Shown one piece after another: positions 1 to 64,000 of a stretch of DNA of 64,000 bases (the stretch's first letter is position 1; each line of letters begins with the position of its first letter). Origin of the DNA: Phoenix dactylifera (lineage: Eukaryota; Streptophyta; Magnoliopsida; Arecales; Arecaceae); contig NC_052396.1 in assembly GCF_009389715.1 (NCBI RefSeq), positions 17,452,631 to 17,516,630 of the forward strand, in the 5' to 3' direction. A program made the position numbers and the translations under genes. Under the pieces are notes generated by a model. It did not search any database. It was not told the DNA's origin and worked only from the letters and a program-made list of their open reading frames with translations.

Positions 1-96
1 ACAGGGGCCAAGAAAAAGCAGCTCCATGTTGATAGGCCAGACGATGACTTGGCTGCAGGTGGTTACGATGATTTGGATGATTATGACTTCATGTGA
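1..96 (+). CDS. C-terminal end of an unidentified acidic-tailed protein (partial)
   Basis: The window opens inside an exon. Frame 1 reads 31 residues and ends in TGA at 94-96. The tail is lysine-rich (AKKKQ) and then strongly acidic with an aromatic end (YDDLDDYDFM). I do not recognise the family; acidic tails of this sort are common in nuclear and ribosome-assembly proteins, but that is only a hint. The bases over the stop (ATGTGAGTAC) also make a good splice donor, so a longer transcript using GT at 93 is possible. No convincing downstream exon in the right phase was found, so I take TGA as the stop and the following bases as 3' UTR. Confidence 0.45.
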   Translation, partial: TGAKKKQLHVDRPDDDLAAGGYDDLDDYDFM

Positions 97-48200: not shown

Positions 48201-51156
48201 AAAATTAAAAACACAAATTAGTGCATGAGGGTTGACATCATTTCAATTTGGAAATTGGACAATGCAGTGGCATCAAATTTACTCTCCATGACTCTGCACT
48301 ATCATAGAAAGATACGACATATCTAGAAATGGGTAATGTTTATAAACACTAGAAAAGACCCATTATAGTAATCAGACAAAAATTGATCCAAAAAAAGGGA
48401 TTTTCAACCCAGTAAATAAGGATAAAAATGGGGTTCAGAGAGCTAAAAACAGAATGGAAGCAGATATAATGGGTATAAGAGATCCAATGATGAAAAAAAT
48501 TGTTATCTAAAGATTCTAAACTATAGTTATCGATTTGACTTCTAAACTATAAGAGGAAACGAAGTGGTAGCACGATGACAATGTTAATCATGTTCGCAAG
48601 AGTGCAAATCTAAAAAATCAGCTATAATCAGTAAATAAGATACCTCTGGATTCCCTGTCTGGGGCCAAATCAAAAAATCTTCCCCAACACAAGAACCAAC
48701 AATGGTAATACCAAGTCTTCGACAGATTTCAATATAAATGATGCTAAGCACGATAGCTGCCAGCAAAACAGAAATTCAATATAAATGTATCAGTTGAAAA
48801 CCGTATACATAAGTACGACCAAACAAGGAAATACATCTGATAGTGAACCATAAACAGCCAGAAAGAATCAAGCTTTACCACTGCCACATCCACAGCTAAG
48901 TACTATATGGAAGTACGAAAACTTTGAATCTAGAAACACAGGCAGTCTTTTGAAGCCTCTTGATTCAAAAAGAACAGCATTAACAGCCTCCAACACTTCC
49001 TCCAAATGGCACCCTATGTCTCTTGAGACCAACTCTGTTTCCACTTCCTTTGCTATCGTATCTAATTCATTTAACCACCCAGACACGCTCTTGCCAGCTA
49101 AAGAAATATCTTCTACATTACTAACTTCCGGTTCAGCCTTGAAAGGAACTGCAGCATCCTTTCTTTCATTTACAAATGAGCACATATCCATATCTCGATG
49201 AAAAGCCATAAAAGCTTCATCTTCAGCAGCAATATACAGCAAGGCCTACAATTTTTTTGCAAGATTAGTTTCAGCAACCATCATATCAACACACTCCGAA
49301 TTCAGCATGTAATATAACAGAAAGGTAGTAAACCACTGAAATTTGTTTTGTTTATGTTTTTCAGGAAGAAAAACATTGTTAGTAGCCAACATCACATGTT
49401 ATGCCATTTACTGACTCCATGCATGAACGTTCAGAATTTATGATAATGGGGATGGGATGGATTACCACTATGAAACAACAGTTAAAAAATAAAAACTCTA
49501 TTCGTGAGTTTGGCAGGAAGCTGAGTCCCATTACAAAGAAAACTACTGATCTACAAATGCACGGCTATCAAATAAGCAATGGATAACCTCTGCAAGGTCC
49601 AATTCAACCACAAAATGCTAGCAGCATACTATAGTAGTTGATAACAGAGAATGCGGATAGCCATGGACGACACATGAATGCAGAAAAAATGCACAACCAG
49701 ATAAAAAGTAATAAAGTGCACAGATGAAGCATGGGATTTCCTACTACTCTCATGCTCAGTTATCTCTTAATCTCCTCCATAGTTTGTCACCTACGTCATG
49801 CTGCAGAGAAGGAATCAAAATTCATGAGTTCACCAGTCAAACTTATGAAACAAAAATGAAGGGTTATCTGTAGTTGCCCATCATGATGGGAATTCATTTA
49901 TTTTAGAGTTTCCTTCCACCTTAAATTTTAGCAAATGCCAGTGTGATCAAGTTTCACAGCTTTACATATGAAGCGAAACTAATGGCAATAGGACCAAAGC
50001 AAACTGAAAAGGCAGCTAGTTGTGGCTATTGATGCTTCTAAAGAACACGACAGCGCTAAAGATGACGCATCTTACTCGCCTAAATTTTTTCTCAAGAGCA
50101 AAATGAGCACAAGTCAAATAACGACAACCATCACAACAAAATTGCCAACGAATTCCACAGATCGGTGATTAAAGATACAAGATATGCCTACAAACAGATG
50201 CGAGCATAGAAGATACCCTGGCAAGCGAAACATCTTTATCCTCGGACTTGAAGGAGATCTCCTGGGTGAATTTTTCCCTGGCAATCTTGAGAATCTGCAT
50301 CCATTGTTTTACATCCATGCCCAAAAAAAAAGGAGAAAAAAAAGAGAGAGAGAACGTGTTGATCAATAAAGACGAAGGCGCGAGTATCGAAGAGAAAAGA
50401 AAGAAAAAGAGGAGAGAAGAAACGAGATAACGGAAACGGTGGGATCCAAGATCCATCTCGTCGAGGGCAACGATCGATCCGCGAACGGCTCGGGTGCGTA
50501 CAATCGTAGAGGCGGAGATGGAGAAGTGGAGGAACGGACCTTGAGATCGGAACCGGAGCGTGGATCGCTCGCTTGACTGCAGAGCGTGGGGGAAACAACG
50601 GCCGGGGGGAGGGGGCTCCCCACGCGCCTCGTCTTCTTCCCGTTCCAGTCCCATCCACGACGATGACGATCATACCTGATCGTAACAAGAAACGGTGTGG
50701 TAGCAGCACAGCCCTCTCACTAAGCCCTCTCTGACTCTCTCACCCTCTTTTTCTTCCCCCTCTCCCTCTCCCCATCTCTTCCTATCTCATCTATCTATCT
50801 ATCCATCTCGGTATCTGACTTCTCTACCTAGCTCTCTTTCGAACCAAGAACCACATCAACCCCCCAGCAAGAACCCTCCCATCCCGGATGCAACAATAGG
50901 GCTAAATCACAGGGTAAGAGGGGAAGAGAGCAAGGGTATCTACCTGAGAGACCGACTCCAGCCGCCGCTCCACGTCGAGGACAGGATCGACGCCATGGTG
51001 GCCGAAAGCATCGGACCCGGGCCCCCAATTCTTCAAGGGCCAACAAGAGAAGGAGGAGGAGGAGCAGCAGGCGGAGGAGGAGGGCGATGAAGAGGGGACG
51101 GCAGGGCGGAGATCATGCGTCGACGTCTCCACCGGAGAGAGAAGACCGACGGGCAC
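45236..51156 (-). CDS. SirB1/transglutaminase-like protein with TPR-like C-terminus
   Basis: Exons on minus: about 51156-50944, 50294-50217, 49245-48879, 48756-48644, 48193-48029, 47906-47767, 45571-45479, 45395-45236 (1329 bp, about 442 codons as drawn). Exons 2-8 join in phase. They read KSEDKDVSLAR, ALLYIAAEDEAFMAF, IIYIEICRRLGITIVG, EDFLIWPQTGNPE, SKASDLNSKSLLELDIATNR, RLHWKRAPRANWGLMLTSPL, LAIMASERLLILQPHNWRLR and YGEAVQELSICMAFAP. This is the plant protein with the transglutaminase-like core 2 (SirB1/YchA) domain followed by a TPR-like tail. Bacterial SirB1 proteins are poorly characterised; I assign no reaction. The invariant Cys-His-Asp set of true transglutaminases is not evident. 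The start is unresolved: the frame of exon 1 is open back to 51156 (a GTG right after a stop) without an ATG. The nearest ATG (51117-51115) is in another frame. An upstream exon, an indel or a non-AUG start would solve this. Confidence 0.8.
45572..47766 (-). other. Intron 6 of the SirB1-like gene (2.2 kb)
   Basis: Bounded by CTAAG|GTATGT and CTCAAG|ATTGGC on minus. The plus-strand text CCAACCAAACAGGGCCTGAG at 47477-47496 resembles the terminus of a short DNA transposon whose partner end near 47280 is weak. No gene was seen. Confidence 0.5.
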
Positions 51157-52229
51157 TTATTCTTGGGCAACGGAAGGAGGGGCAGCACGCGGCACCTGAC
51201 GCAGTCTCGCTGGCGAAGGGCGAACAAGAGGAGGAACAGCAACGATGGATGGTGTGATCTCCCGAGCCGCCGTCCATGTTCCTCCGGCGAATACGAGGAT
51301 GCACCGCTGATGATGATATCCACGCACTGCTCTCACTACTCACCACCACCATTAACCCCCCCTGCCTTCCCTTTTTATTTTCCCCCGATTTGCCTCTCTC
51401 TTACTTCGTTTATCTTACTCCCAGAAACGGAACATGAGACGGAGAGACGAGGCGAAAGGAGAGGGTATCAAGAGAGTGGAATGGCACTATTTGTCCGTTT
51501 CTGTTTCGGCTGTCATGCGATCGACTCCACCGGAAGGAAGATAAGAGGAGCAGCGGGGCCAGTGGCAGCGAAGAGGGGGAAGGAGTGAGGAAAGAGTAGG
51601 CAAGTTGGATTGCAAAATTGTGGGGGGGAATAGTACGGAGGCCGTAGGGTTGGATGCGTGAACCGGTGCGGTCCTTTCCGGTGCGCTAATGTCTATCCGA
51701 TTAATTAAAAACGACCTGCTTGCTTGCGTACATATATAGCTATGATTCTAATCGTGTCGATTAGCTTTCTCGATTGCTGGCGCGATGATGGGTAATGGAA
51801 GGGGCGGATGCTGGCGGACCGACGGCGATGGGTCGTTTTCTCCTTTCTTATTCTGCTTGAAGTCAGTCATTCTTCCGTGATGGACTCGGTTGCTCGTTGT
51901 TTGGAGCTGGGGGTGAGCTTCCGAGTTGCTTCTTGGGGTGGGGGTAAGCTGACGTTAATGTGACTCGCACGCCTAGGGTGCGATGCAATGCCCTGCTTGT
52001 GCCGCAACCTCGACGGGTTCCCTCCGGTCATCGACGCACCTCGGCCTCCCTGGCCTCTTTCATCGAGACGGATTTCTCAAGAATTTGATTGCAGGATATG
52101 TTGAATTTACTTTGATACTATTTGTAACAACTTATAACCTCATATAAAAAAATTAGATGAAAACAATTATTTAGTTTTATATAAATTTTTTATATATTAC
52201 CATATAAAACACACGTCTTGGATACTTAT
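51157..52229. other. Upstream region of the SirB1-like gene
   Basis: GC-rich for about 450 bp and then AT-rich. It probably includes the 5' UTR and promoter of the minus-strand gene. Open stretches on both strands near 51115-51590 reflect GC content. The last five bases (CTTAT) are the left target duplication of the LTR element. Confidence 0.5.
52225..52229. repeat. Left target-site duplication CTTAT
   Basis: CTTAT directly precedes the element and is repeated exactly at 55301-55305 directly after it. Five bp is the usual size for LTR retrotransposon integration. Confidence 0.9.
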
Positions 52230-52395
52230 TGTTGCTGGAAATTGGACCCGGGGGTGGCTGTCGGCTGAGGAGGAGGAGCTCCGGCACGAGAATGGCGGAT
52301 GGCGGTCTGTCGGCGGGCGGCGTCCTCCGGGAGACCTGCAAAATGCCGGTGGCCGGGGTTTCCGGCACCGGTCCTCCGATGCTTAAGTCAGAGAG
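52230..52395 (-). repeat. Inverted copy of the LTR's U5 end
   Basis: TGTTGCTGGAAATTGGACCC up to GATGCTTAAGTC is the reverse complement of the last 160 or so bases of the 3' LTR (ending CCAATTTCCAGCAACA). I count about nine differences, nearly all transitions. It gives the whole insertion a long terminal inverted repeat. Confidence 0.9.
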
Positions 52396-52596
52396 GGGCT
52401 TCTTCCTCCCAAGGGAGGGCTTAGAACTTCTACATACAGTCCATCTCCTTCTCTAAAATTAAGCCCCCCTCTGACTTATGCATTTTGCAGGTTTCCCGAA
52501 GGACGTCGCCCGCCGACGGACCGCCACCCGCCTTTCTCGCGCCAGAGCTCCTCCTCCTCAGCCGACGGCTGCCCCCGGGTCCAATTTCCAGCAACA
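52394..52596 (+). repeat. Truncated 5' LTR containing R-U5 only
   Basis: From AGGGGCTTCTTCC onward it matches the 3' LTR from about 55061 to its end, but lacks an internal stretch of about 36 bp (between CTTATGCA and TTTTGCAGG) present in the 3' LTR and in the inverted arm. No U3 sequence (54173 to about 55060) is present at the 5' side. Confidence 0.85.
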
Positions 52597-52619
52597 GTTG
52601 ACGCTAGAGGAAGGGTCCG
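52597..52619 (+). other. Primer-binding-site-like region
   Basis: GTTGACGCTAGAGGAAGGG directly follows the LTR end CAACA, where the primer site of an LTR element belongs. The TAGAGGAAGGG tail resembles that of Gypsy-type elements. I cannot assign the tRNA. Confidence 0.45.
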
Positions 52620-52629
52620 AGTTGCGGCT

Positions 52630-52803
52630 ATGAAACTAAGGAGCAGAAGAGCCTTTAATGCCTCTCGGCATCATGCTCCAAGTTCCGAATGCTCAGTTCA
52701 GAATTCACCACCAAGATCTCCGGTAGATCAAGTTCCACAAGTCCAACCCGAGCACTTCGACGCGCTAGTGCAGCAAGTCCAAGCGCTAGCCATTGCAGTC
52801 TAA
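52630..52803 (+). pseudogene. Broken gag start of the LTR element
   Basis: ATG at 52630 opens MKLRSRRAFNASRHHAP and the frame runs into a TAA at 52801-52803. Beyond it the same frame continues with proline-rich gag-like text to another stop near 52940. The reading is typical of the low-complexity N-terminus of plant Gypsy gag. The rest of gag and all of pol are absent. Confidence 0.6.
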
Positions 52804-53204
52804 AGTCTGCAACAAGTGGAGGCCCCTCCTGTGCCGCCTCCACGGGTTCATGTTAAGCAGAGGAAGAAACTTTCTCCCGAGCTATCTCGAATCAGGCATG
52901 GCTCCCGTTGCAACGACGTATGTGGGGGCAACCAGTGAGAAGTAGTAGCCCAAGTCTTACGTCAACGAGTTGGAGGGAAAGAGAAATAAAAGCTGAGGTC
53001 TGGAGAAGGAGAGTTATGGAGCTTTAAAATGAGATTGTAAGCCTCTGTGGCAAAGGGTACAGCCCCATTAAATCCTATTATCCTTCCAAGTCTTCTGTCT
53101 TCCGGCAGCAAGTAAGAAACTAGCATGTACTCCCTCCTCACGGGCGTAAGTCCTCAAGACGGCGCCCGCGACGTTGCTCTCCTTCAGAGCGTCGCCATCA
53201 CCGA

Positions 53205-53400
53205 AGCCCCCGCCGAGCTCATGCAGGCCGAGCCGAGCTCAGAAGACCGAGCTCATGCAGAAGGCCGAGCTTATGCAGACTGCTAAGCTCAGAAGGCTGT
53301 CGAGCTCATCCAGGCCGAGCTCATGTAGGCTGCCAGGCTCAGAAGGCTGCCGAGCTCAGAAGCCTGAGCTCAGAAGCCCGAACGCAGAACACCTCCCCCA
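53205..53400. repeat. GCCGAGCTCA-type tandem array (internal copy)
   Basis: Degenerate repeats of GCCGAGCTCA plus TGCAGG or GAAGGC. The same family fills 54215-54735 inside the 3' LTR, so one array has been copied or extended into the internal region. Confidence 0.8.
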
Positions 53401-53680
53401 GAAAATCGAGCCAAAGAAAGCTGGTGCTAAGTCAAGTCCTGAGGGACTTCGAAGTTCGGAAGCCATCAAAATATCTCCAAAAGGTACAGGATGCCACTTT
53501 GGCTTCAAATAATTTCAATGTTTTATCTATTTTCAGGTCGGAGAATCCAAAAAACGACCTACGGGTATCTCTATCTCCAACATCGCCGCGCTCCAAATAA
53601 GGGCGCACGATCGCCAACGGACGAAGTCCGTCTCCTGTATGTGTCTCCAATGATGCCCCGACTAAGCTCGGGATGCCAAT

Positions 53681-53943
53681 TTGACGACATTCGACGCCCT
53701 TCGACGACATTCGACGCCACTCGACGCCATTCGACGACATTCGATGCCACTCGACGCCATTCGACGACATTCGGCGCCACTCGACGCCATTCGACGACAT
53801 TCGACGCCATTCGACGACATTCGATGCCACTCGACGCCATTCGACAACATTCGACGCCACTCGACGACATTCGATGCCATGTCAACGCCGTTCGATGCCA
53901 TATCAACGCCGTTCGACGCCCTGTCAACGCCGTTCGACGCCTC
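53681..53943. repeat. 10-bp periodic array (TCGACGCCAT) with 30-bp and 21-bp higher units
   Basis: Twenty decamers run without a break from 53681 to 53880. They cycle mostly through TCGACGACAT, TCGACGCCAC, TCGACGCCAT, making a 30-bp unit. Then three units of 21 bp (GTCAACGCCGTTCGA(C/T)GCC) follow to 53943. The many open stretches on both strands here come from the repeat and are not genes. Confidence 0.95.
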
Positions 53944-54156
53944 ATACGACAACACGCCCCAATCTGAGTGGGGGCACCCTGCTGAGTCGACCACAAGCCA
54001 AAGAAGGCTGCTGAGTCGACCTAAAGCACTTAACTCCAACTGCATGAGAGGTACACCCTACTTGGCACGCATATCTCCATATATATTTGGCTATATTACA
54101 GGATGATCGATGACTGGACTACTTCCTTCGCCCGAGCCAAAAAGCAGCTCGAACTT

Positions 54157-54170
54157 GGAAGTCGGGGGGT
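54157..54170 (+). other. Polypurine tract
   Basis: GGAAGTCGGGGGGT, followed by AG and then the 3' LTR start TGTTGGGAG, is placed and composed as the plus-strand primer of an LTR retrotransposon. Confidence 0.75.
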
Positions 54171-54214
54171 AGTGTTGGGAGAAAAATGGACCACCTACAA
54201 ATTAAAGCACCCAA

Positions 54215-54735
54215 ATCAGAAGGCTGCCGAGATCATCCAGGCCGATCTCAGAAGGCCAAGACCAGAAGGCCGAGCTCAGAAGGCTGCCGAGCTCATCCAG
54301 GCCGAGCTCCGAAGGCCGAGACCAGAAGGCTGCCGAGCTCATTCAGGCCGAGCTCATGCAGGCTGCCGAGCTCAGAAGGCCGAGCACAGAAGGCCGAGTT
54401 TAAAAGGCCGAGACTAGAAGGCCGAGCACAGAAGGTTGCCTAACTCAAAAGGCCGAGCATAGAAGGCTGCCGAGCTTATTCAGGCCGAGCTTAGAAAGCT
54501 GTCGAGCTCATGCAGGCTGCCGAGCTCAGAAGGCCGAGCACAGAAGGCCGAGACCAAAAGGCCGAGACCAGAAGGCTGAGCACAGAAGACTGCCTAGCTC
54601 AGAAGGCCGAGCACAGAAGGCTGCCGAGCTCATTCAGGCCGAGCTCATGCAGGCTACCGAGCTCAGAAAGCTGCCGAGCTCAGAAGGTCGAGCACAGAAG
54701 GCCGAGACCAAAAGGTCGAGACCAGAAGGCCGACC
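54215..54735. repeat. GCCGAGCTCA-type tandem array in U3
   Basis: About 520 bp of degenerate units built from GCCGAG, CTCAGAAGGC, CACAGAAGGC and CTCATTCAGG. Upstream tandem arrays in U3 can act as enhancers in retroelements; here that is only a guess. Confidence 0.85.
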
Positions 54736-55032
54736 TCGTCGTCCACATGCTGCGGCCATGCCCTGCAGCAGCCTCACCGTACCATACTTTATTTGCCGAC
54801 CACGCCACGACATATCAACCAGGGACCATACCCTGCTACGACTATCAACGTCTCACCATTCCCAAGAATGTACTGCACTGCGCACCACAAGCAAGCTCTG
54901 GCTACACGCCATCTCCTCCCATGATGGAAACGGGCCATCCATGGCAACTCATTATTTCCACGCCCACGTCGAATCGTGACGGTAACCCATTAATTCGCTC
55001 AGTCACATCACAGGTAATCCTGGCACTCCCCC

Positions 55033-55039
55033 TATAAAA
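55033..55039 (+). promoter_or_regulatory. TATA box of the LTR
   Basis: TATAAAA lies about 28 bp before the point (about 55061) where homology to the 5' R-U5 segment begins. The two facts support each other: that point should be the transcription start, hence the start of R. Confidence 0.75.
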
Positions 55040-55300
55040 GGGGAGCTTCTCCCTCTAAAAAGGGGGCTTCGTCCTTCCAAGGGAGGGCTTGAGACTTCTA
55101 CATACAGTCCATCTCCTTCTCCAAAATTAAGCCCTCCTTTGACTTAAGCATCGGAGGGCCGGTGCCGGAAACCCCGGCCACCGGTATTTTGCAGGTCTCC
55201 TGGAGGACGCCGCCCGCCGACGGACCGCCACCCGCCATTCTCGCGCCGGAGCTCCTCCTCCTCAGCCGACGGCCGCCCTCGGGTCCAATTTCCAGCAACA

Positions 55301-56038
55301 CTTATATATGCTAAAAAATACAAATAATATATTCTGGATTAATCCATTTGACTAGAGAATACCACAATATGAGCTTAATTATTTGGGCTGACCATATATA
55401 AATTATGATGTTTATAATTAAATTATAGTACTTATGGTAGATTTGAACGTGAACATCATGATTTGAACAGGCAAGATATGTGGGAATTGATGCATGGCGG
55501 CGAAGATTGATGCACAGCCAAGTGACGTGGTGAAATTGAGCAAATAGAGTTGCCGTGAACCCAAATAGGGGGGGAAATTGAGCAAAGTGAGGGTGTGGAT
55601 CGCACACGTCGAATCCCTTCTGCCAATGGGCTTGTGCATTTCGGACGCGTCCCCCGGGGCATTTGCGGCTAGGATTCGTGCGTCACCTGGGGCCAGGGGA
55701 CGGAGCCGGGAAAGACAAGGGTGGGGGGCCCGGGCTCCCCGGCCGGTGCATCGTGTCTACCTGCCAAAACTGTAGATTTGGGGCCGCCACTCTTTTGCCA
55801 TCGGAGCGGAAGTACGTAGGCCCCTCTCTCACCACAACTATCACGAGCACGATTCAACGGCGGAGGGAGAGAGGAAGGAAAAATTGTAACCATGAAAAAA
55901 GAAGACCAAGAGAAAAGGAAATAAGGCGATCGGAAGTCCCGCTCTCGGGGAACGGTTGCAGAAGGAGGGAGAGATAAATGAGGGGCAGGAAGGGGTAGAG
56001 AAACCGACGGGGAGAAAGAGAGAGAGGAGGACTGGGAG
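55301..56038. other. Upstream region of the helicase gene
   Basis: The first five bases are the right target duplication CTTAT. It is AT-rich to about 55480 and then GC-rich with purine-rich text (GGAGAAAGAGAGAGAGGAGG) just before the ATG, as in plant 5' leaders. No further gene is supported. Confidence 0.55.
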
Positions 56039-59000
56039 ATGGAAGCCGCTGCTTCCTGCTGCTGCTGCTGCGGATTATCTGCGGCGGCGGCAGCAGCAGC
56101 AAAGGCGGGTTCTGGTGGCGGCATCAGCAGCATCGGCTTCCTTCCACCGGTCCGGCCCCCAAAGCGGCGGATCATCGCTTCTTTCAATGACTCCTCCACC
56201 ATGCTCCCCATCCGCAGCAGCAGTTCGGAGCCACCAAAGGCATCTCCTTCTCCTCCTCGTCCGCGGCCGTCGCATTCATCATCACTATTGCGACGGTCAT
56301 CATCGAAGACCCGCTTGTTGATCGGTAGCAAGAACAAGAAGAGGACGGACGTGGTAGTTGTGGTGGGGAAGAAGGAGCGAGAGAGGGAGGGGGGAGAATG
56401 CTTGCCCTCCGCGGAGGAGGCGTCCATCAGCGTCGGGACGCTCTACCAGAACGGGGACCCGCTGGGGCGACGGGAGCTGGGCAGGTGCGTGGTCCGCTGG
56501 ATCAGCCAGGGCATGCGCTCCATGGCCTCCGACTTCGCCTCCGCCGAGATTCAGGGCGAGTTCTCCGAGCTCCGGCAGCGCCTCGGCGCCGCCGCCCCCA
56601 ACGGCACCGGGGGCCTCGCTTTCGTCATCCAGGCGCAGCCCTACCTCTACGCCGTCCCCATGCCCAAGGGCCTCGAGTCCCTCTGCTTCAAGGCCTGTAC
56701 TCACTACCCCACTCTCTTTGACCACTTCCAGCGCGAGCTCCGAGACATCCTCCACGGCCTCCAGCGCCAGGCCGTCTTCGCCGACTGGCGCTCCACCGAG
56801 TCCTGGAAGCTCCTCAAAGAATTTGCTAATTCAGGTCACAGTCTCCCCCTCCCAATCCTCCAGCTGCTCTGCTTTTCCTTGGATGGTATTTCGCAACTGA
56901 TTATTGTATCCAGAGGTTCATGTTTGTAGTTCCTCGTCTTATTAAAAAAAATAAATTGGTGCCTATCAAGGATTATATGTAGAACAAAAACAAAATTTTG
57001 GGATCAGTAGTAGAATAGTTGCAGAAGCTGAAGCAATCCATTAGTAATGAACTCAGGCAAGATCATAGTAATTAATCCGGTCAAATAAATTTGATTACTT
57101 TAAAGACCTTAAGCGTTCATGAGCAGATGCAAGCAAAACAGAAAACTGCAACCATAAACTATGCAAACTGATACTACTATTGAATCCAAGATAATCTTCC
57201 ATCAATATCTACTTGCCCTTCTCTTTGGTCTCTTTTATTAACGAAGTTATTCATATATATTGCAGCACAGCATCGAGCAGCAGTGCGGAAACCACCCCAG
57301 GCTAAGCCTGTGCACAGTGGTCTTGGAATGGAGCTGGAGAAAGCTAAAACTATACAGGCCAATATCGCATACTTTGTGAAGAACATGTCAGACCTCCTTC
57401 GTATAGAGCGGGATGCAGAGCTTGAATTCACCCAAGAGGAGTTGAATGCTGTTCCCACACCGGATGAAAAATCCAACTCACTGAAACCAATTGAGTACCT
57501 TGTAAGCCACGGACAGAAGCAACAAGAGCAGTGTGACACAATCTGCAATTTGAATGCGATTAGCTCTTCTACTGGTGAGCACAAACTTTTTCTTGTATGT
57601 TTTAATGTTACGAATCTCATGCGTGTCAGAAATCCAGTAGAAACAAACTGAGATTTTGGTCATTGCCGTGCCGGTTGATAAGTGTCTTCAGTTAGCTCCA
57701 CTAATTTACTCATGTAGAGTTAAGATTCTTGCTTAACTTGTCTGCCAGTAGGCTGTCGGGCCATATCAAATTTGCCATTTTGTTCAAATGTATTTAACTA
57801 AAGATTCCTCCATAAATCTGCTATGCTGTGATTATCTATACATTTGTTTTTTCCATTTTGGTGTTTTAATAATCCTTCAGATTTGAGGGTGCTAATTAGT
57901 GTAGTTGATTAGGTCGTTGTTGGTTGGTACCAACATAGGTTCAAGTCTTGGCTTCACCTGATTTTTGGCCTGGGTTTCTTTAGCCCTAGCTCTCAAAAAT
58001 AATCCTGTAGATTTGTCTCAGTAAAAAGGTTCTTGGTGGCCATTGTTTTTGTGTTAGCAGTTCATTTTCATTGTGTTTGCTTAGTGGGGTACTGGAGTGT
58101 TTAGCAGGCACTTGCTCCTCTTGACATACACCAGAGGTTAAACAATGTTGCTGCAGGAAGCACCAATGAGTGGAGGTGTGTCAGATAAAACATCAGTGGT
58201 GGTTCTTGTCTGGGTAGGGGAACAAATGCAGTTTATAATGCTCAAAATCATTGATTCTATTTTTCTAGTTAGATTGCAGTGAATCAGCTATTCTTTAATG
58301 ACAGATTCTTTGTTCTTTTGCAGCTCTCTAAGCATTAACTCGTAAATATTTATGTCCACAGGATTGGGAGGAATGCATTTGGTCTTATTTAGAGTTGAAG
58401 GAAACCATCGACTGCCCCCTACAACTCTGTCTCCAGGGGACATGGTTTGTGTGAGGACATGCGATAGCAGGGGTGCAGGAGCAACTTCATGCATGCAAGG
58501 CTTTGTTAACAATTTAGGTGAGGATGGCTGTAGCATTACTGTGGCTCTGGAGTCCCGCCATGGAGATCCCACCTTTTCTAAGCTATTTGGGAAGAGTGTG
58601 CGCATTGACCGTATACAAGGATTGGCTGATGCACTTACTTATGAGGTATTAGAACACATGGCGGACTTAATATGCTGTGTCCAAAGAGGCAAATTTTTGC
58701 ACCACCTGTTACTCCCATGGAGTGTGCTGAATATACCTTTCGCTCTAGATGTGATAGTTGTTGTGGACTTTTCTTTTTGTTATAATCAATTTCTAGTACA
58801 TAATTGGATATTTGGATCTAATGCAAAGGACTACTGCATACAATTGAAAGATACATATCCCCTAGCGCGAAGAAGCAACTATAGCAGACTGCTGAAGTTA
58901 CTAGCACATCACTTTTTACCTCTCTAGAGGCATATTCTTTGGTTGACCTCACTAGAATAAATGCTGGTCCATGAATTTAGATTATTCCATAGCCAATTAT

Positions 59001-62000
59001 AATATCATTTTTTCCAATTTATCATGAATTATTATTTCGCTATATTTGATCATTTTTCTCTCTGCCCTTTGTTACAATATGATTGTGGATGATCTAAGTC
59101 AATGTTGTGTAAAGGATGAAGGAAGATGAAACATACTTTTCATGTGTTCTGAATTCCTGTTTCAAAGTTGCTGCTTTGTGCTATTATGACTGTAAGGTGA
59201 CTCGATTACTTTGGTAGAGCTTTAAGGATTATGTTAGTTTGTTTATAGTAATTGAAGATAATTAATATACATATGAGATGCTGGTATTCACTTTCTTTGT
59301 TTTTTCAAAATGGCAGCGCAATTGTGAAGCACTAATGCTGCTACAGAAGAATGGTTTACAGAAGAAAAATCCCTCGATTGCTGTGGTTGCTACATTATTT
59401 GGAGACAAGGAAGATATCATGTGGCTGAAGCAGAATCATCTGGTCGAATGGAGTCAGGTAAGACTTGATCGGTTAATAGAGAAGGGGAAATTTGATGACT
59501 CCCAATTAAAAGCTATTGCCTTGGGATTGAACAAGAGGCGGCCTCTTTTAGTAGTCCAAGGACCTCCTGGTACTGGCAAGACAAGGTTGCTTAAGGAGCT
59601 GATAGCCCTTGCTGTTCAACAAGGTGAACGTGTGCTTGTGACAGCTCCAACAAATGCAGCTGTGGATAACATGGTTGAAAGACTCTCAGATATTGGACTA
59701 GACATTGTACGAGTTGGAAATCCAGCTCGAATATCTGCAAATGTGGCTTCAAAATCATTAGGAGAGATTGTCAATGATAGGCTTGCAAATTTCAAGAAAG
59801 AATTTGAGAGAAAGAAGTCAGATCTAAGGAAGGACCTTAGGCTTTGTTTAAAGGATGATTCGTTGGCAGCAGGTATACGTCAGCTCTTAAAACAGCTCGG
59901 AAAGACCTTAAAGAAGAAAGAGAGGGATACCATAAAGGAAGTGCTTTCAAGCACCCAGGTAGTACTCTCCACTAATACTGGGGCAGCTGATCCTGTCATT
60001 CGAAGATTGGACAGCTTTGATCTGGTTGTTATAGATGAAGCAGGGCAAGCAATTGAACCATCCTGCTGGATTCCTATTTTGCAAGGAAAACGCTGTATAT
60101 TGGCAGGTGATCAATGTCAGCTTGCTCCAATAATTTTATCTAGAAAGGCCTTGGAAGGTGGACTAGGCATATCTCTTCTGGAAAGAGCATCAGCTTTGCA
60201 CGAAGGCATGCTAGCCACAAAATTAACCACTCAATATCGAATGCACAATGCAATAGCCAGTTGGGCATCAAAAGAGATGTATGATGGACTGCTGCAATCT
60301 TCACCGACTGTCTCCTCACATCTTCTTGTTGATTCTCCATTTGTGAAGGTGTGTATTATTAAGTTCTTGTAATACCTTTGTTTTATGTCTTCACTAATGC
60401 TGGTGGCATATACATGGCATGCTGATAAAATGTTAGACTCTTCATCTGTCTTTTGCCCTTTTATTGGTTAATTTCCATAACTGTTGATTAAATATCCTAG
60501 AATGACTGGATCAAATTCCTGGTTTTAATTTAGAAAAAGTGTCAGTAATATTAAAAGCAATGTTTCTCAATACTCATTTAAGAATTCTGAAAATGGATAT
60601 TTCTTACCCAATAGTCGATAAACGGATAAAGACTTTATGTTGGGATGTGTTATTCATAATTTAATCCCCTTCTTTTGTGCAAAGGCTTCTTTGAATCGTC
60701 TATTGATGTGCCTGTATTGACCACAGAAGGCGATGAAAGCTTGGAGAGTTCTTAAATACAATAGAATCTATGTGACATTCTATTACCGACTTGCAGTCAA
60801 TTTCCATTGCGTAATAACTAACAATACATATAACAACCTTTTCTGTTAGTTCTTTATTTGAGCTCCAGTATGTGATTATGTCATTAATATTTAATATGAC
60901 TTTGCACTCAGTTTTTACTTCTGTCTATGTCTGAAATTCTTAGATCTCTGTTTTTCCGGTAGGAAGTTACTAATATTAAAAATCCTGATAGATGTAACTC
61001 AAGTCCTAGCATCTTTTATGGTAAGTTCTTTAAAAGATTTTAGAAAAGATTTTGTGTTACAAACTACACCTTTGATCAAGGCCTGTGTTTCAAACAGGCT
61101 GCATGGATAACTCAGTGCCCAATGCTCTTACTTGATACACGAATGCCATATGGGAGCTTATATGTTGGTTGTGAGGAACATTTGGATCCGGCTGGCACGG
61201 GTTCCTTCTATAATGAAGGTGAAGCAGACATTGTCATTCAACACATCTTCCATCTAATATATTCTGGTATATATTCTTCCCTCAACACATCTTCCATCTA
61301 ATATATTCTGGTATATATTCTTCCCTCTCATGATAAGAACCTGCTGACTTACCACTATGCTATTTATTCTTTAATCTTTGTGTGTGTGTGTGTGTGTGTG
61401 TGTATACCCTTTTTTGTTTCTGCTCTCTTGTCTGTTATTCTTTGTACAATTAAAATTCTTCGTGGTAATTTTCGGAAGAGCTGCTATTATGTAGAGTTTT
61501 GCTATGGTGCTTCTAAATTTTCCTCCAGGTACATAATCTTGACTATAGATTCAAAAATAAAAGGTCTAAATGGATGACTGTATAACTGGTAGTACAAGTC
61601 ACCAGATTCAGTTTTTTTTAAAAAAAATTAAACCAAAATCTGTCTCTTGTGAAACTGATGCTTGATTGGATCCTCATCAAAGAGGAGCTTTAGGAGCACC
61701 ATGATGAGGGGGTACATGTTAGACTGCTGCAAGATGTTCCTGCCGGCGAGCAGCTCTAATGGCATGTAACCACTTGTCCCCTTGATCTTTATCCGGCAGC
61801 TGTCCGATCTTTTTAGTTTGTGAGTTGGAGGGGACGAGGGAGAGATCTTTGCATCCGCTGCCGCCTCCTTGTCCACGTCGGCATTGGCTGTGGCGTGGCA
61901 CCGGAGTGGCAAATCTTAGCACAGAAGTGCGGCTCGATGATGGGGATGTTGGAGGCCTTGATATGGTTGTGGATAGTGGTAGAATGGTGGTGGATGTAGT

Positions 62001-63869
62001 CGAGGCCCTAGGCGAGGTTGGTGGCTGAATGCGGATGAGAACGGGGTAAAGTTGGGGTTGTCGGGGTAGTTTGAGAGAGGGTATTGGGGGAGTGCTCGTA
62101 GGCGAGGTAGATGTTGTTGCCAATGAGGGAGGCGTTGAGGAGGCAGACAAAAGCGGCTCTTGCACATGGCGAAGGGGCAGGAAGGGTGTTGGGTTCGCTG
62201 CGGAAGGGGCGTTGGAAGATGATAGTGTCCTTGCCATGGAGGGAGCAGTGTCGGGAGGAGGAGGCAGAGGTGATGAACTTGTTGGTGGAGGTGCAAATCT
62301 CAAAGAAGGGGTAGAGGATTGGGGTCTCCTGGAGGGTGTGTTGGTCAGGAAGGCTGATGAGGAGGAGGCTGATGAGGCGGCAAAGGCAGCCATGGAGGAG
62401 GAGGAGGTGGAGGTCTTGGTCCGGCAGTAGATACATACAGGAGTCAATGATGAAGAAGCTGGAGGAGAAGCAGGAGGTGGGGTGGGGCTTGAGTGGGATG
62501 CCATGGGGAATGAGGCCTCGAAACTGGAATCAAGTTAGGGTTAGGGTTTGGAGGATGGAAGGGGAAAAGAGTAAAGTGCGGGGGGAAGGCGAGGAGAACA
62601 AAGATCTGGTGGAAGAGGAGGTTATGCCGCCACCACCGAATTCCTCTTCCACCACCGGTTGCCATTTGTTTTCTAGCATACCCTTTAACAATTGATGGCT
62701 AGGATCACTACTTAATTTGTATTAAAAATAATATGGAAGTACTGTAGCAAAACCCTTTTTGTATTATTTGAACTCAATTGATATAATTACTAAAAATCGA
62801 CAATTCAAAGACAAGGAATTCCTTGTATTATTTCAGTTGCCTGTAAAAATATATAAACTTACCTTTGTGAATATTGTTGTACTCTTCTTGTTTAATTGGT
62901 ATATTTGCTTTATGGAAGGCTGGATATGTTGACAATCATACATACGAAAGGCTATGTGCATTACTTTCAGGAACTCTAACAGATTCAGCAGAAATCAGTC
63001 CGAATTCATGATTTTCCTTGTATCAATAATTAAATTGGCATAAATACTCCTCACCTCCCTGAACAAGCTTAGGGCTTGAATTAGTAGTGTCTGATGAGTA
63101 ACCAAAGTATTGATACTGGTATACATGCTGGCACTTCAATTGTAAGAATTAATTAAGCCATTCAATCATGTAATGATGTTTTCACTTCGAACTCTAGCAA
63201 TGAATATGAACATTTTTTTTACAAGTACACCATATTTATTCTCCGGATTATTGCTGATGTACTCTGCCAATTTAGATCAACTAAGAGAATCATTTTAAAT
63301 CATCCAGTTGATTGTTGATAAGTGCAATATTTGTGATTTATTTGTTGTAGCACAAATCCTAACTACATAACCAGCCATATAAAGTTGACTTGGAGTAGGG
63401 CAGGTTGCCAACACATAATTATTATTGCATCCTACGACCTTGTTATTCGTACAAATTTCACAGTTTACAATTACATTGCAAATTCAGTGTAGATTCTCTG
63501 AAAATTATATTTTGCATCTACAATATTTTGACTTTTTCTTTTCTTACACTTTAATTATTTTTATATCCTATTCCAGTTCTTATGTTATCTACCTGGATTT
63601 TGACATGCCTTCTTTCTCTGGCTCGATATAGGGGTTCTTATTCGCTCTTTCCTGTATAACTGATTTTTTATCTGCTTAACTTGCTCTCTTAACTTGCATG
63701 CTTTTATGCAGGAGTCTCTCCAACTGCCATTGCTGTTCAATCACCTTATATTGCTCAGGTACAGCTTTTGAGGGATAGGCTTGATGAATTTCCAGAAGCT
63801 TCTGGTGTTGAGGCTGCAACTATAGACAGCTTTCAGGGGAGGGAGGCTGATGCTGTAATTATATCAATG
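56039..63869 (+). CDS. SMUBP-2-like superfamily 1 helicase, probably plastid (3' end outside the window)
   Basis: Six exons lie in the window: 56039-56834, 57266-57574, 58362-58645, 59317-60348, 61098-61266, 63712-63869 (2748 bp, 916 codons, all phases closed). The final exon(s), which should carry motif VI, are beyond the edge. Residues 1 to about 130 are low complexity and leader-like. Conserved text starts with LYQNGDPLGRRELGR. Helicase motifs: Q region FDDSQLKAIALGLN, Walker A GPPGTGKT at about 545-552, Ia TAPTNAAVDNMVE, II VVIDEAGQA (DEAG box), III LAGDQCQLAP, IV LTTQYRM, V IDSFQGREADA. It matches the Arabidopsis At5g35970 type of DNA-binding protein SMUBP-2 homologue. Family role: 5'-to-3' ATP-dependent unwinding of DNA or RNA. 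Every motif in the window is intact. Exon 5 ends within a 44-bp duplication that provides a second copy of its donor. Confidence 0.92.
61240..61327 (+). repeat. Exact 44-bp tandem duplication spanning the exon 5 donor
   Basis: AACACATCTTCCATCTAATA up to TTCTTCCCTC occurs at 61240-61283 and again at 61284-61327. Each copy contains ATTCTG|GTATAT, so two identical donors lie 44 bp apart. Only the first keeps the reading phase into exon 6. Confidence 0.93.
61379..61404. repeat. (TG)n microsatellite
   Basis: About 13 uninterrupted TG units in intron 5 of the helicase gene. Confidence 0.9.
61628..62700 (-). pseudogene. Decayed receptor-like kinase copy, antisense in helicase intron 5
   Basis: On minus, frame-shifted pieces give a receptor-kinase order: a leader-like start (MATGGG..WWRHNLLFHQ) near 62665, low-complexity Pro/Ser text, ICTSTNKFI, NNIYLAYEH (the hinge before the kinase C-lobe), then CRIKIKGTSGYMPLELLAGR and KLLFDEDPIKHQF near 61640-61780 (compare GT.GYM.PE and LL.LLSGEDPI of kinases). 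At least three frames are needed, and PE of the activation segment reads PLE. No introns were apparent, so a retrocopy is possible. A LysM-type receptor kinase is my best guess for the source. It is not functional. Confidence 0.5.
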
Positions 63870-64000
63870 GTACGCTATTGCTTTCCAGTAGTGTCACTTT
63901 TAGAAAAAGATTTTCATAGATATATCTATCATATAGGTTTATTCTTACATAATACAGAAGCTATGTTGCATATATTTGTCTATACTTGAGCAGATCTGCA

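What the first reader, a model, noticed from the sequence alone, without database searches (positions are those of the whole stretch)
52230..55300. LTR retrotransposon inserted with U5 at both ends: footprint of self-primed strong-stop cDNA
The insertion has a perfect 5-bp target duplication (CTTAT), so its outer ends are integration ends. The right end is a normal U5 end. The left end is not U3 (TGTTGGGAG) but an inverted U5 of about 160 bp, followed by direct R-U5 that starts about 28 bp after where TATA would sit, i.e. at the RNA 5' end. The junction has the microhomology GGGGCTT, which occurs both at the start of R and, in inverse, within R (AAGCCCCC at about 52460). This is what results if the 3' end of minus-strand strong-stop DNA folds back on itself, primes at GGGGCTT and copies to its own 5' end instead of jumping to the 3' R. 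Integration would then have accepted two U5 ends. I know of no routine element class with this layout.
Basis: partly seen in the sequence, partly recalled or inferred. Interest (0 to 1): 0.87.

Follow-up and report, generated by a model that had tools for sequence, protein, structure and literature searches.

The report
Plant retrotransposon inserted with two tails
An old plant retrotransposon copy carries the same (tail) end sequence at both of its ends, which looks like the fossil of a mistake made while its RNA was being copied into DNA; it is unusual and informative, but it looks like a one-off accident rather than a new kind of element.

Summary
The 3071-bp insertion 52230-55300 is flanked by a perfect 5-bp duplication (CTTAT). 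Its right end is a normal 1128-bp LTR. Its left end is an inverted U5 plus part of R (172 nt, 93% identical to the right-end U5), followed by direct R-U5 that starts 29-36 nt after the TATA box, at a 7-nt inverted microhomology. The three U5 copies differ by similar amounts (6, 7 and 5 private changes in 136 columns), so the inverted copy is about as old as the insertion. Best explanation: an error of reverse transcription before integration. The minus strand ran off the RNA 5' end, switched at GGGGCTT onto the 5' end of a minus-strand cDNA and copied it to its U5 terminus; integrase then used two U5 ends. The main rival, a microhomology-mediated rearrangement soon after insertion, is not excluded. 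Other copies and the empty site could not be checked: 14 of 14 own-genome requests did not complete. Inverted partial LTRs have been reported in HERV-K.

The parts
52225..52229 (+). left copy of target-site duplication CTTAT
52230..52401 (-). inverted U5 + 3' part of R (left outer end; its outer terminus is a U5 terminus TGTTGCTGG)
   Evidence: 172 nt, 93% to the reverse complement of 55129-55300
52395..52401 (+). junction microhomology GGGGCTT shared by R start and inverted R
52395..52596 (+). direct R-U5 (5' LTR without U3), with a 36-nt stem-loop deleted at GCAT 52480-52483
52461..52467 (+). AAGCCCC, complement of GGGGCTT: the inner pairing/priming site
   Evidence: (pair I4)
52597..52616 (+). 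primer-binding-site-like start of the internal region (gTTGACGCTAGAGG...); tRNA not identified
   Evidence: sequence; position inferred
52597..54172 (+). internal region; no Pfam match at curated cut-off in the 10 reading frames of it that were scanned; tandem arrays
54157..54172 (+). polypurine-tract-like GGAAGTCGGGGGGTAG
   Evidence: sequence
54173..55300 (+). complete 3' LTR (U3-R-U5), 1128 bp, TGTTGGGAG...CAGCAACA
55033..55039 (+). TATA box TATAAAA of the 3' LTR
55062..55069 (+). GGGGGCTT, predicted RNA 5' end (R start), TATA +29 to +36
   Evidence: start site inferred
55301..55305 (+). right copy of target-site duplication CTTAT

Best explanation
This is one insertion of a short LTR retrotransposon without recognised coding capacity, whose cDNA was mis-made before integration. 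Inferred steps: (1) normal tRNA priming and first strand transfer made a minus strand; (2) this strand was copied past the PBS through U5 and R to the capped 5' end of an RNA, so that it ended ...AAGCCCC-3'; (3) instead of continuing through U3, this 3' end paired with GGGGCTT inside the R of a minus-strand cDNA 5' end (a strong-stop cDNA in the particle, or the strand's own other end) and copied it to its U5 terminus; (4) the annealed cDNA supplied a double-stranded second U5 end; (5) integrase inserted two U5 ends with a normal 5-bp duplication, and repair filled the gaps. Shown: the structure, the target duplication, the junction at TATA+29..36 with microhomology, and the similar divergence of the three copies. 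Inferred: every enzymatic step. A reverse-transcription origin of some kind I put at about 0.77; the inter-end jump as its specific form at about 0.5.
For: Perfect TSD hard against an exact U5 terminus on both sides. The direct copy begins where the RNA should begin (TATA 55033, junction 55062-55069), which run-off at the cap explains; in the 3' LTR 66 maximal inverted matches of 6 nt or more have their second arm in R-U5, and 2 of the 66, one of them the observed one, start in the 21-nt window 55055-55075. GGGGCTT is the only perfect 7-nt complement of the 3' end in the 202-nt cDNA read from the direct copy, and pairs there with probability 0.35; of 300 dinucleotide shuffles that keep that end, 20 have a perfect 7-nt site and 12 pair at 0.3 or more. 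Private substitutions are 6 (inverted), 7 (direct) and 5 (3' LTR) in 136 columns, 18 sites in all, none three-state; if the inverted copy was made later from the 5' copy its age is at least 0.67 of the insertion's, if from the 3' copy at least 0.49 (one-sided 95%). The copies differ at 7.0-9.6% of aligned bases (12 of 172, 18 of 202, 13 of 136), which argues strongly against a fold-back sequencing artefact.
Against: No experiment; one locus only. The transcription start is predicted, not measured. In the cDNA read from today's 3' LTR the pairing site is mutated and the fold does not use it. In that LTR there are 12 inverted matches of 7 nt or more, 4 with the second arm in R-U5, and none of them starts at the RNA start, so the junction is not at the best microhomology available today. 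The direct copy has a second 7-nt inverted pair, 52417/52460. The equal-divergence test has weak power (18 sites): a rearrangement in the first third to half of the insertion's life is allowed. U3 and U5 termini share an imperfect terminal inverted repeat of about 20 nt, which would help a later template switch land exactly at the LTR end.
Confidence: 0.5

Rival explanations
1. One reading: minus-strand strong-stop DNA folded back on itself, primed at GGGGCTT and copied to its own 5' end. To become part of the element, its 5' end must then be joined to the full minus strand arriving at the PBS (for example by ligation of the nick left when the tRNA is removed), and the hairpin must be opened or copied.
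For: Same junction sequence; in the cDNA from the 5' copy the 3' end pairs at exactly this site in the minimum-energy fold (forcing the pairing does not change the energy, -31.4 kcal/mol). HIV-1 strong-stop DNA is reported to self-prime, and the nucleocapsid protein to reduce this (passages of PMC4668388).
Against: Needs an extra joining step and hairpin resolution. The left arm keeps the 36-nt stem-loop that the direct copy lacks, so if it was copied from that same strand the deletion must be later. The 3' LTR version of the cDNA does not fold so; 12 of 300 shuffles pair as well.
Confidence: 0.25
2. Post-insertion rearrangement: a normal element later lost its 5' U3 by a double template switch or gene conversion (at GGGGCTT and at the shared TGTTG terminus) that copied U5 in inverse.
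For: Both junctions have microhomology; U3 and U5 termini share TGTTG plus an imperfect repeat over about 20 nt (0 of 5000 random pairs score as well; the inner 17 nt alone 121 of 5000). Long inverted repeats rearrange readily (general knowledge).
Against: Needs two switches, one exactly at the LTR terminus (there are 186 five-nt matches between U3 and inverted R'-U5, 31 of six, 3 of seven and 1 of eight) and one at the predicted RNA start by coincidence. The similar divergence of the three copies requires it to be early.
Confidence: 0.2
3. Assembly or library artefact (fold-back chimeric read).
For: Inverted duplications are a common long-read artefact (general knowledge).
Against: The two arms differ at 12 of 172 positions, 12 of 12 being transitions, and the target duplication is perfect; an artefact would give an identical arm.
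Confidence: 0.02

Closest known systems
HERV-K124 and the HERV-related element of Hughes and Coffin 2002 (cited in PMC3625200; passages seen; the 2002 paper not held, known here by its title only)
   Same: Retroviral insertion with inverted partial LTR sequence; LTR inversion plus template switching proposed by the authors for HERV-K124
   Different: HERV-K124 has inverted, truncated LTRs inside and at its 3' end (78 nt each in the table row as I read it); here the inverted piece is U5-R' at the left end, next to a direct R-U5 that starts at the predicted RNA start, with a 5-bp duplication
Template-switching complex LTR retrotransposons of Triticeae, rice and maize (Sabot and Schulman 2007, PMC1950507, whole text)
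   Same: Plant LTR elements whose odd structure is ascribed to a strand-transfer error before integration, argued from flanking 5-bp duplications
   Different: Those have three LTRs in direct orientation and two internal regions; here one internal region and an inverted U5 end
Self-priming of HIV-1 minus-strand strong-stop DNA (passages of PMC4668388)
   Same: Strong-stop cDNA 3' end primes on itself through R
   Different: In the passages seen a source of aberrant cDNAs that competes with strand transfer; here the product would have been integrated
HIV-1 proviruses with asymmetric LTRs (12 of 23 passages of PMC9278108 shown)
   Same: Integrated proviruses whose two LTRs differ, ascribed to template switching
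   Different: 24 of 26 have an intact 5' LTR and a deleted 3' LTR; a few proviruses with internal inversions are mentioned, but no U5 end at the left in the passages seen

Membership tests
LTR retrotransposon insertion | target-site duplication flanking the element | tested here: met
   CTTAT both sides
LTR retrotransposon insertion | two direct LTRs with U3 at the left | tested here: not met
   left end has inverted U5 then R-U5; no U3
LTR retrotransposon insertion | PBS and PPT next to the LTRs | tested here: inconclusive
   PPT-like 54157-54172 clear; PBS-like TTGACGC at 52598 not matched to a named tRNA
Ty3/Gypsy or Ty1/Copia superfamily | order of pol domains | not testable with these tools
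   no pol found: 0 Pfam families in 52387-52800; in 9 further frames of the internal region only 4 sub-threshold matches, none to a retroelement domain; no protein relatives of 52618-52800
Template-switching complex element (Sabot and Schulman) | three LTRs, two internal regions, flanking TSD | tested here: not met
   TSD present, but one internal region and partial copies
Self-primed strong-stop product | inverted copy begins at the RNA 5' end through microhomology with R | tested here: met
   junction 55062-55069, TATA +29..36; unique 7-nt site in the direct copy's cDNA; the RNA start itself is predicted
Self-primed strong-stop product | left arm copied from the same molecule as the direct R-U5 | tested here: inconclusive
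   left arm keeps 36 nt that the direct copy lacks; order of events unknown

The most novel reading that the evidence does not exclude
A minus-strand strong-stop cDNA in the particle was itself built into a provirus-like insertion as its left end, and the integrase of a plant retrotransposon used two U5 ends in a living plant: a rescue route for cDNAs that miss the second strand transfer, which genome-wide surveys of U5-U5 insertions could measure.
Probability: 0.45. Interest if true: 0.55.

Novelty: new variant of a known kind. Interest (0 to 1): 0.42.

Why it matters
If right, it is a fossil of a failed strand transfer that still integrated. It marks the RNA 5' end of the family, suggests that a plant retrotransposon integrase can pair two U5 ends, and gives a sequence signature (inverted U5, then R starting at about TATA+30, within one target duplication) that can be counted in any plant genome to measure how often reverse transcription goes wrong this way. 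LTR finders that expect direct LTRs would probably report such a copy as truncated (inference).

Tried and rejected
Family structure: the left arm lies upstream of the predicted RNA start, so it should not be in the RNA and should not be inherited by daughter copies (inference). No other copy of the element in the 64-kb window (BLAST of the whole element, E up to 1e-3), and no repeat of 100 nt or more with a 20-nt seed in 1-50000 (50001-64000 was not scanned that way). Autointegration of a cDNA into itself would join a U5 terminus to an internal site, whereas here the U5 terminus is free and an internal R position is joined to R start; rejected by reasoning. Nested or adjacent second insertion: one target duplication spans the whole; rejected.

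Led nowhere: exact 21-nt U5 terminus in viral contigs, 0 matches; 19-nt U5 terminus in genome contigs, 0 (a prokaryote collection, so little was to be expected); degenerate PBS pattern in viral contigs, 2 loci, unrelated to the element (one 15-nt match in L002, E 0.14). Pfam: 0 families for 3 reading frames (one in the element, two in the neighbouring gene region); 9 further frames of the element, 4 matches at E 0.08 to 0.8, all below cut-off. Protein search with 52618-52800: 2 candidates, none scored. The fold of the strong-stop cDNA from the 3' LTR did not show the observed pairing.

Paper searches that ran: (10 of 10). None of the listed papers was seen to describe a plant element with U5 at both ends; but lists were capped (15 of 21, 10 of 25, 12 of 117, 12 of 98), most listings were seen only as title and start of abstract, and the library lacks most subscription papers. 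Also seen without use: abstract and outline of PMC5651808, passages of PMC12789967, PMC4476161 (about snRNA U5), PMC3228705 and PMC13185573.

Full report
What is there. The window is plant nuclear DNA: the open frame next to the element (55982-56926) has relatives in Ensete ventricosum, Iris, Nelumbo, grasses and other plants among 117 listed proteins (only the 7994 candidates sharing most words were scored), the closest being two unnamed fragments at 87-88% identity over 57-61% of the query. A Zingiberales host is my guess and is not shown. The insertion 52230-55300 is flanked by CTTAT on both sides. From left to right it has an inverted U5 with part of R (52230-52401), a direct R-U5 (52395-52596), a PBS-like start, an internal region without a Pfam match at cut-off in the 10 frames scanned, a PPT-like tract (54157-54172) and a complete 1128-bp 3' LTR (54173-55300).

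More than chance. The inverted arm is 172 nt and 93% identical to the 3' U5 (E 6.5e-70). The outer base of the arm is exactly the U5 terminus and abuts the target duplication. A 5-bp match at two random borders has a chance of about 0.001 (four to the power of minus five).

The inner junction. The direct copy starts with GGGGCTT. In the 3' LTR this is 55063-55069, 30 nt after the first T of TATAAAA at 55033, where transcription would be expected to start in plants (general knowledge). GGGGCTT is also, in inverse, at 52461-52467 of R. In the 202-nt cDNA read from the direct copy it is the only perfect 7-nt complement of the 3' end; DNA folding pairs the end there with probability 0.35, and forcing that pairing leaves the minimum energy unchanged. 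As a control, 20 of 300 dinucleotide shuffles that keep the end have a perfect 7-nt site and 12 of 300 pair at 0.3 or more, so the fold is suggestive only. In today's 3' LTR the partner has changed and only 6 nt match, and the fold does not use it. In that LTR 66 inverted matches of 6 nt or more have their second arm in R-U5, and 2 of these, one being the observed pair, start in the 21-nt window at the RNA start; of the 4 such matches of 7 nt or more none does.

Age. In 136 columns shared by the three copies there are 6 changes private to the inverted arm, 7 to the direct copy and 5 to the 3' LTR; K80 distances are 0.105 (inverted-direct), 0.075 (inverted-3' LTR, over 172 bases) and 0.097 (direct-3' LTR, over 202 bases). 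One of the 7 lies at the edge of the 36-nt gap, where the aligner's placement is arbitrary; read either way it is one difference. If the inverted arm had been copied later from the 5' copy, its age would be at least 0.67 of the insertion's; if from the 3' copy, at least 0.49 (one-sided 95%). So it arose at insertion or in the earlier part of its history. Of the 18 changes 16 are C/T or G/A, as expected of methylated plant repeats (general knowledge). With a plant rate of 1.3e-8 per site per year (recalled) the insertion is some 3-4 million years old.

Mechanism. The reverse-transcription models considered here agree that the left end is a copy of the 5' terminus of minus-strand cDNA attached at R start. 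The strand polarity then puts the strong-stop's own 5' end, where the tRNA was, next to the PBS and internal region, so the hairpin must be joined to the main minus strand and then opened. In the model I prefer, the minus strand itself runs through PBS, U5 and R of an intact RNA to the cap and jumps to a minus-strand cDNA 5' end, in trans or at its own other end. The template's end explains the exact U5 terminus, and the template strand itself makes the second end double-stranded for integrase. The 36-nt stem-loop missing only from the direct copy (between GCAT repeats) would fit two molecules if the deletion predates insertion, but it may be later. These are inferences; no call tests the enzymatic steps.

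Main rival. A double template switch after insertion, at TGTTG and at GGGGCTT, is possible, because U3 and U5 termini share an imperfect repeat of about 20 nt (0 of 5000 random pairs score as high over 22 nt; 121 of 5000 for the inner 17). Against it: there are 186 five-nt matches to choose from, some of them longer, the inner switch would have hit the predicted RNA start by coincidence, and the event must be early. I leave it 0.2.

Not done. Pattern scans of two other collections found nothing related. So 'one-off' rests on reasoning and on the absence of a second copy in this window, not on a census.

Known precedents. Sabot and Schulman 2007 (PMC1950507, whole text) describe four plant insertions (two in Triticeae, one in rice, one in maize) ascribed to template switching, with TSDs, but with three direct LTRs. 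PMC3625200 (passages) describes HERV-K124 with inverted partial LTRs and cites Hughes and Coffin 2002 for a mechanism of LTR inversion; that paper is not held. HIV-1 strong-stop self-priming is described in PMC4668388 (passages), asymmetric LTRs in PMC9278108 (passages). Hence: a new variant of a known kind of reverse-transcription accident, not a new element class.

Noticed in passing
52480-52483 (equivalent to 55152-55187): The direct R-U5 lacks a 36-nt GC-rich stem-loop between GCAT repeats that the inverted arm and 3' LTR keep: it looks like a slippage deletion over a hairpin.
   Followed up: partly
53212-53389 and 54217-54737: The internal region shares the 14-nt GCCGAGCTCAGAAG-type repeat array with U3, as if U3 repeats had been copied inside the element or the reverse.
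   Followed up: no
53679-53941: Array of 26 copies of a 10-nt unit ATTCGACGCC inside the internal region.
   Followed up: no
55030-55070: 21-bp tandem duplication of the LTR promoter; the first unit holds TATAAAA, the second TCTAAAAA and the predicted RNA start.
   Followed up: no
54173-54194 and 55279-55300: U3 and U5 termini form an imperfect terminal inverted repeat of about 20 nt; it may help the integrase accept two U5 ends.
   Followed up: partly
55982-56926: Open frame 682 bp from the insertion with relatives in Ensete and Iris, the Iris one named DNA polymerase alpha-associated DNA helicase A; the frame itself has no Pfam match. Probably a first exon; the likeness to IGHMBP2 is recalled.
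   Followed up: partly
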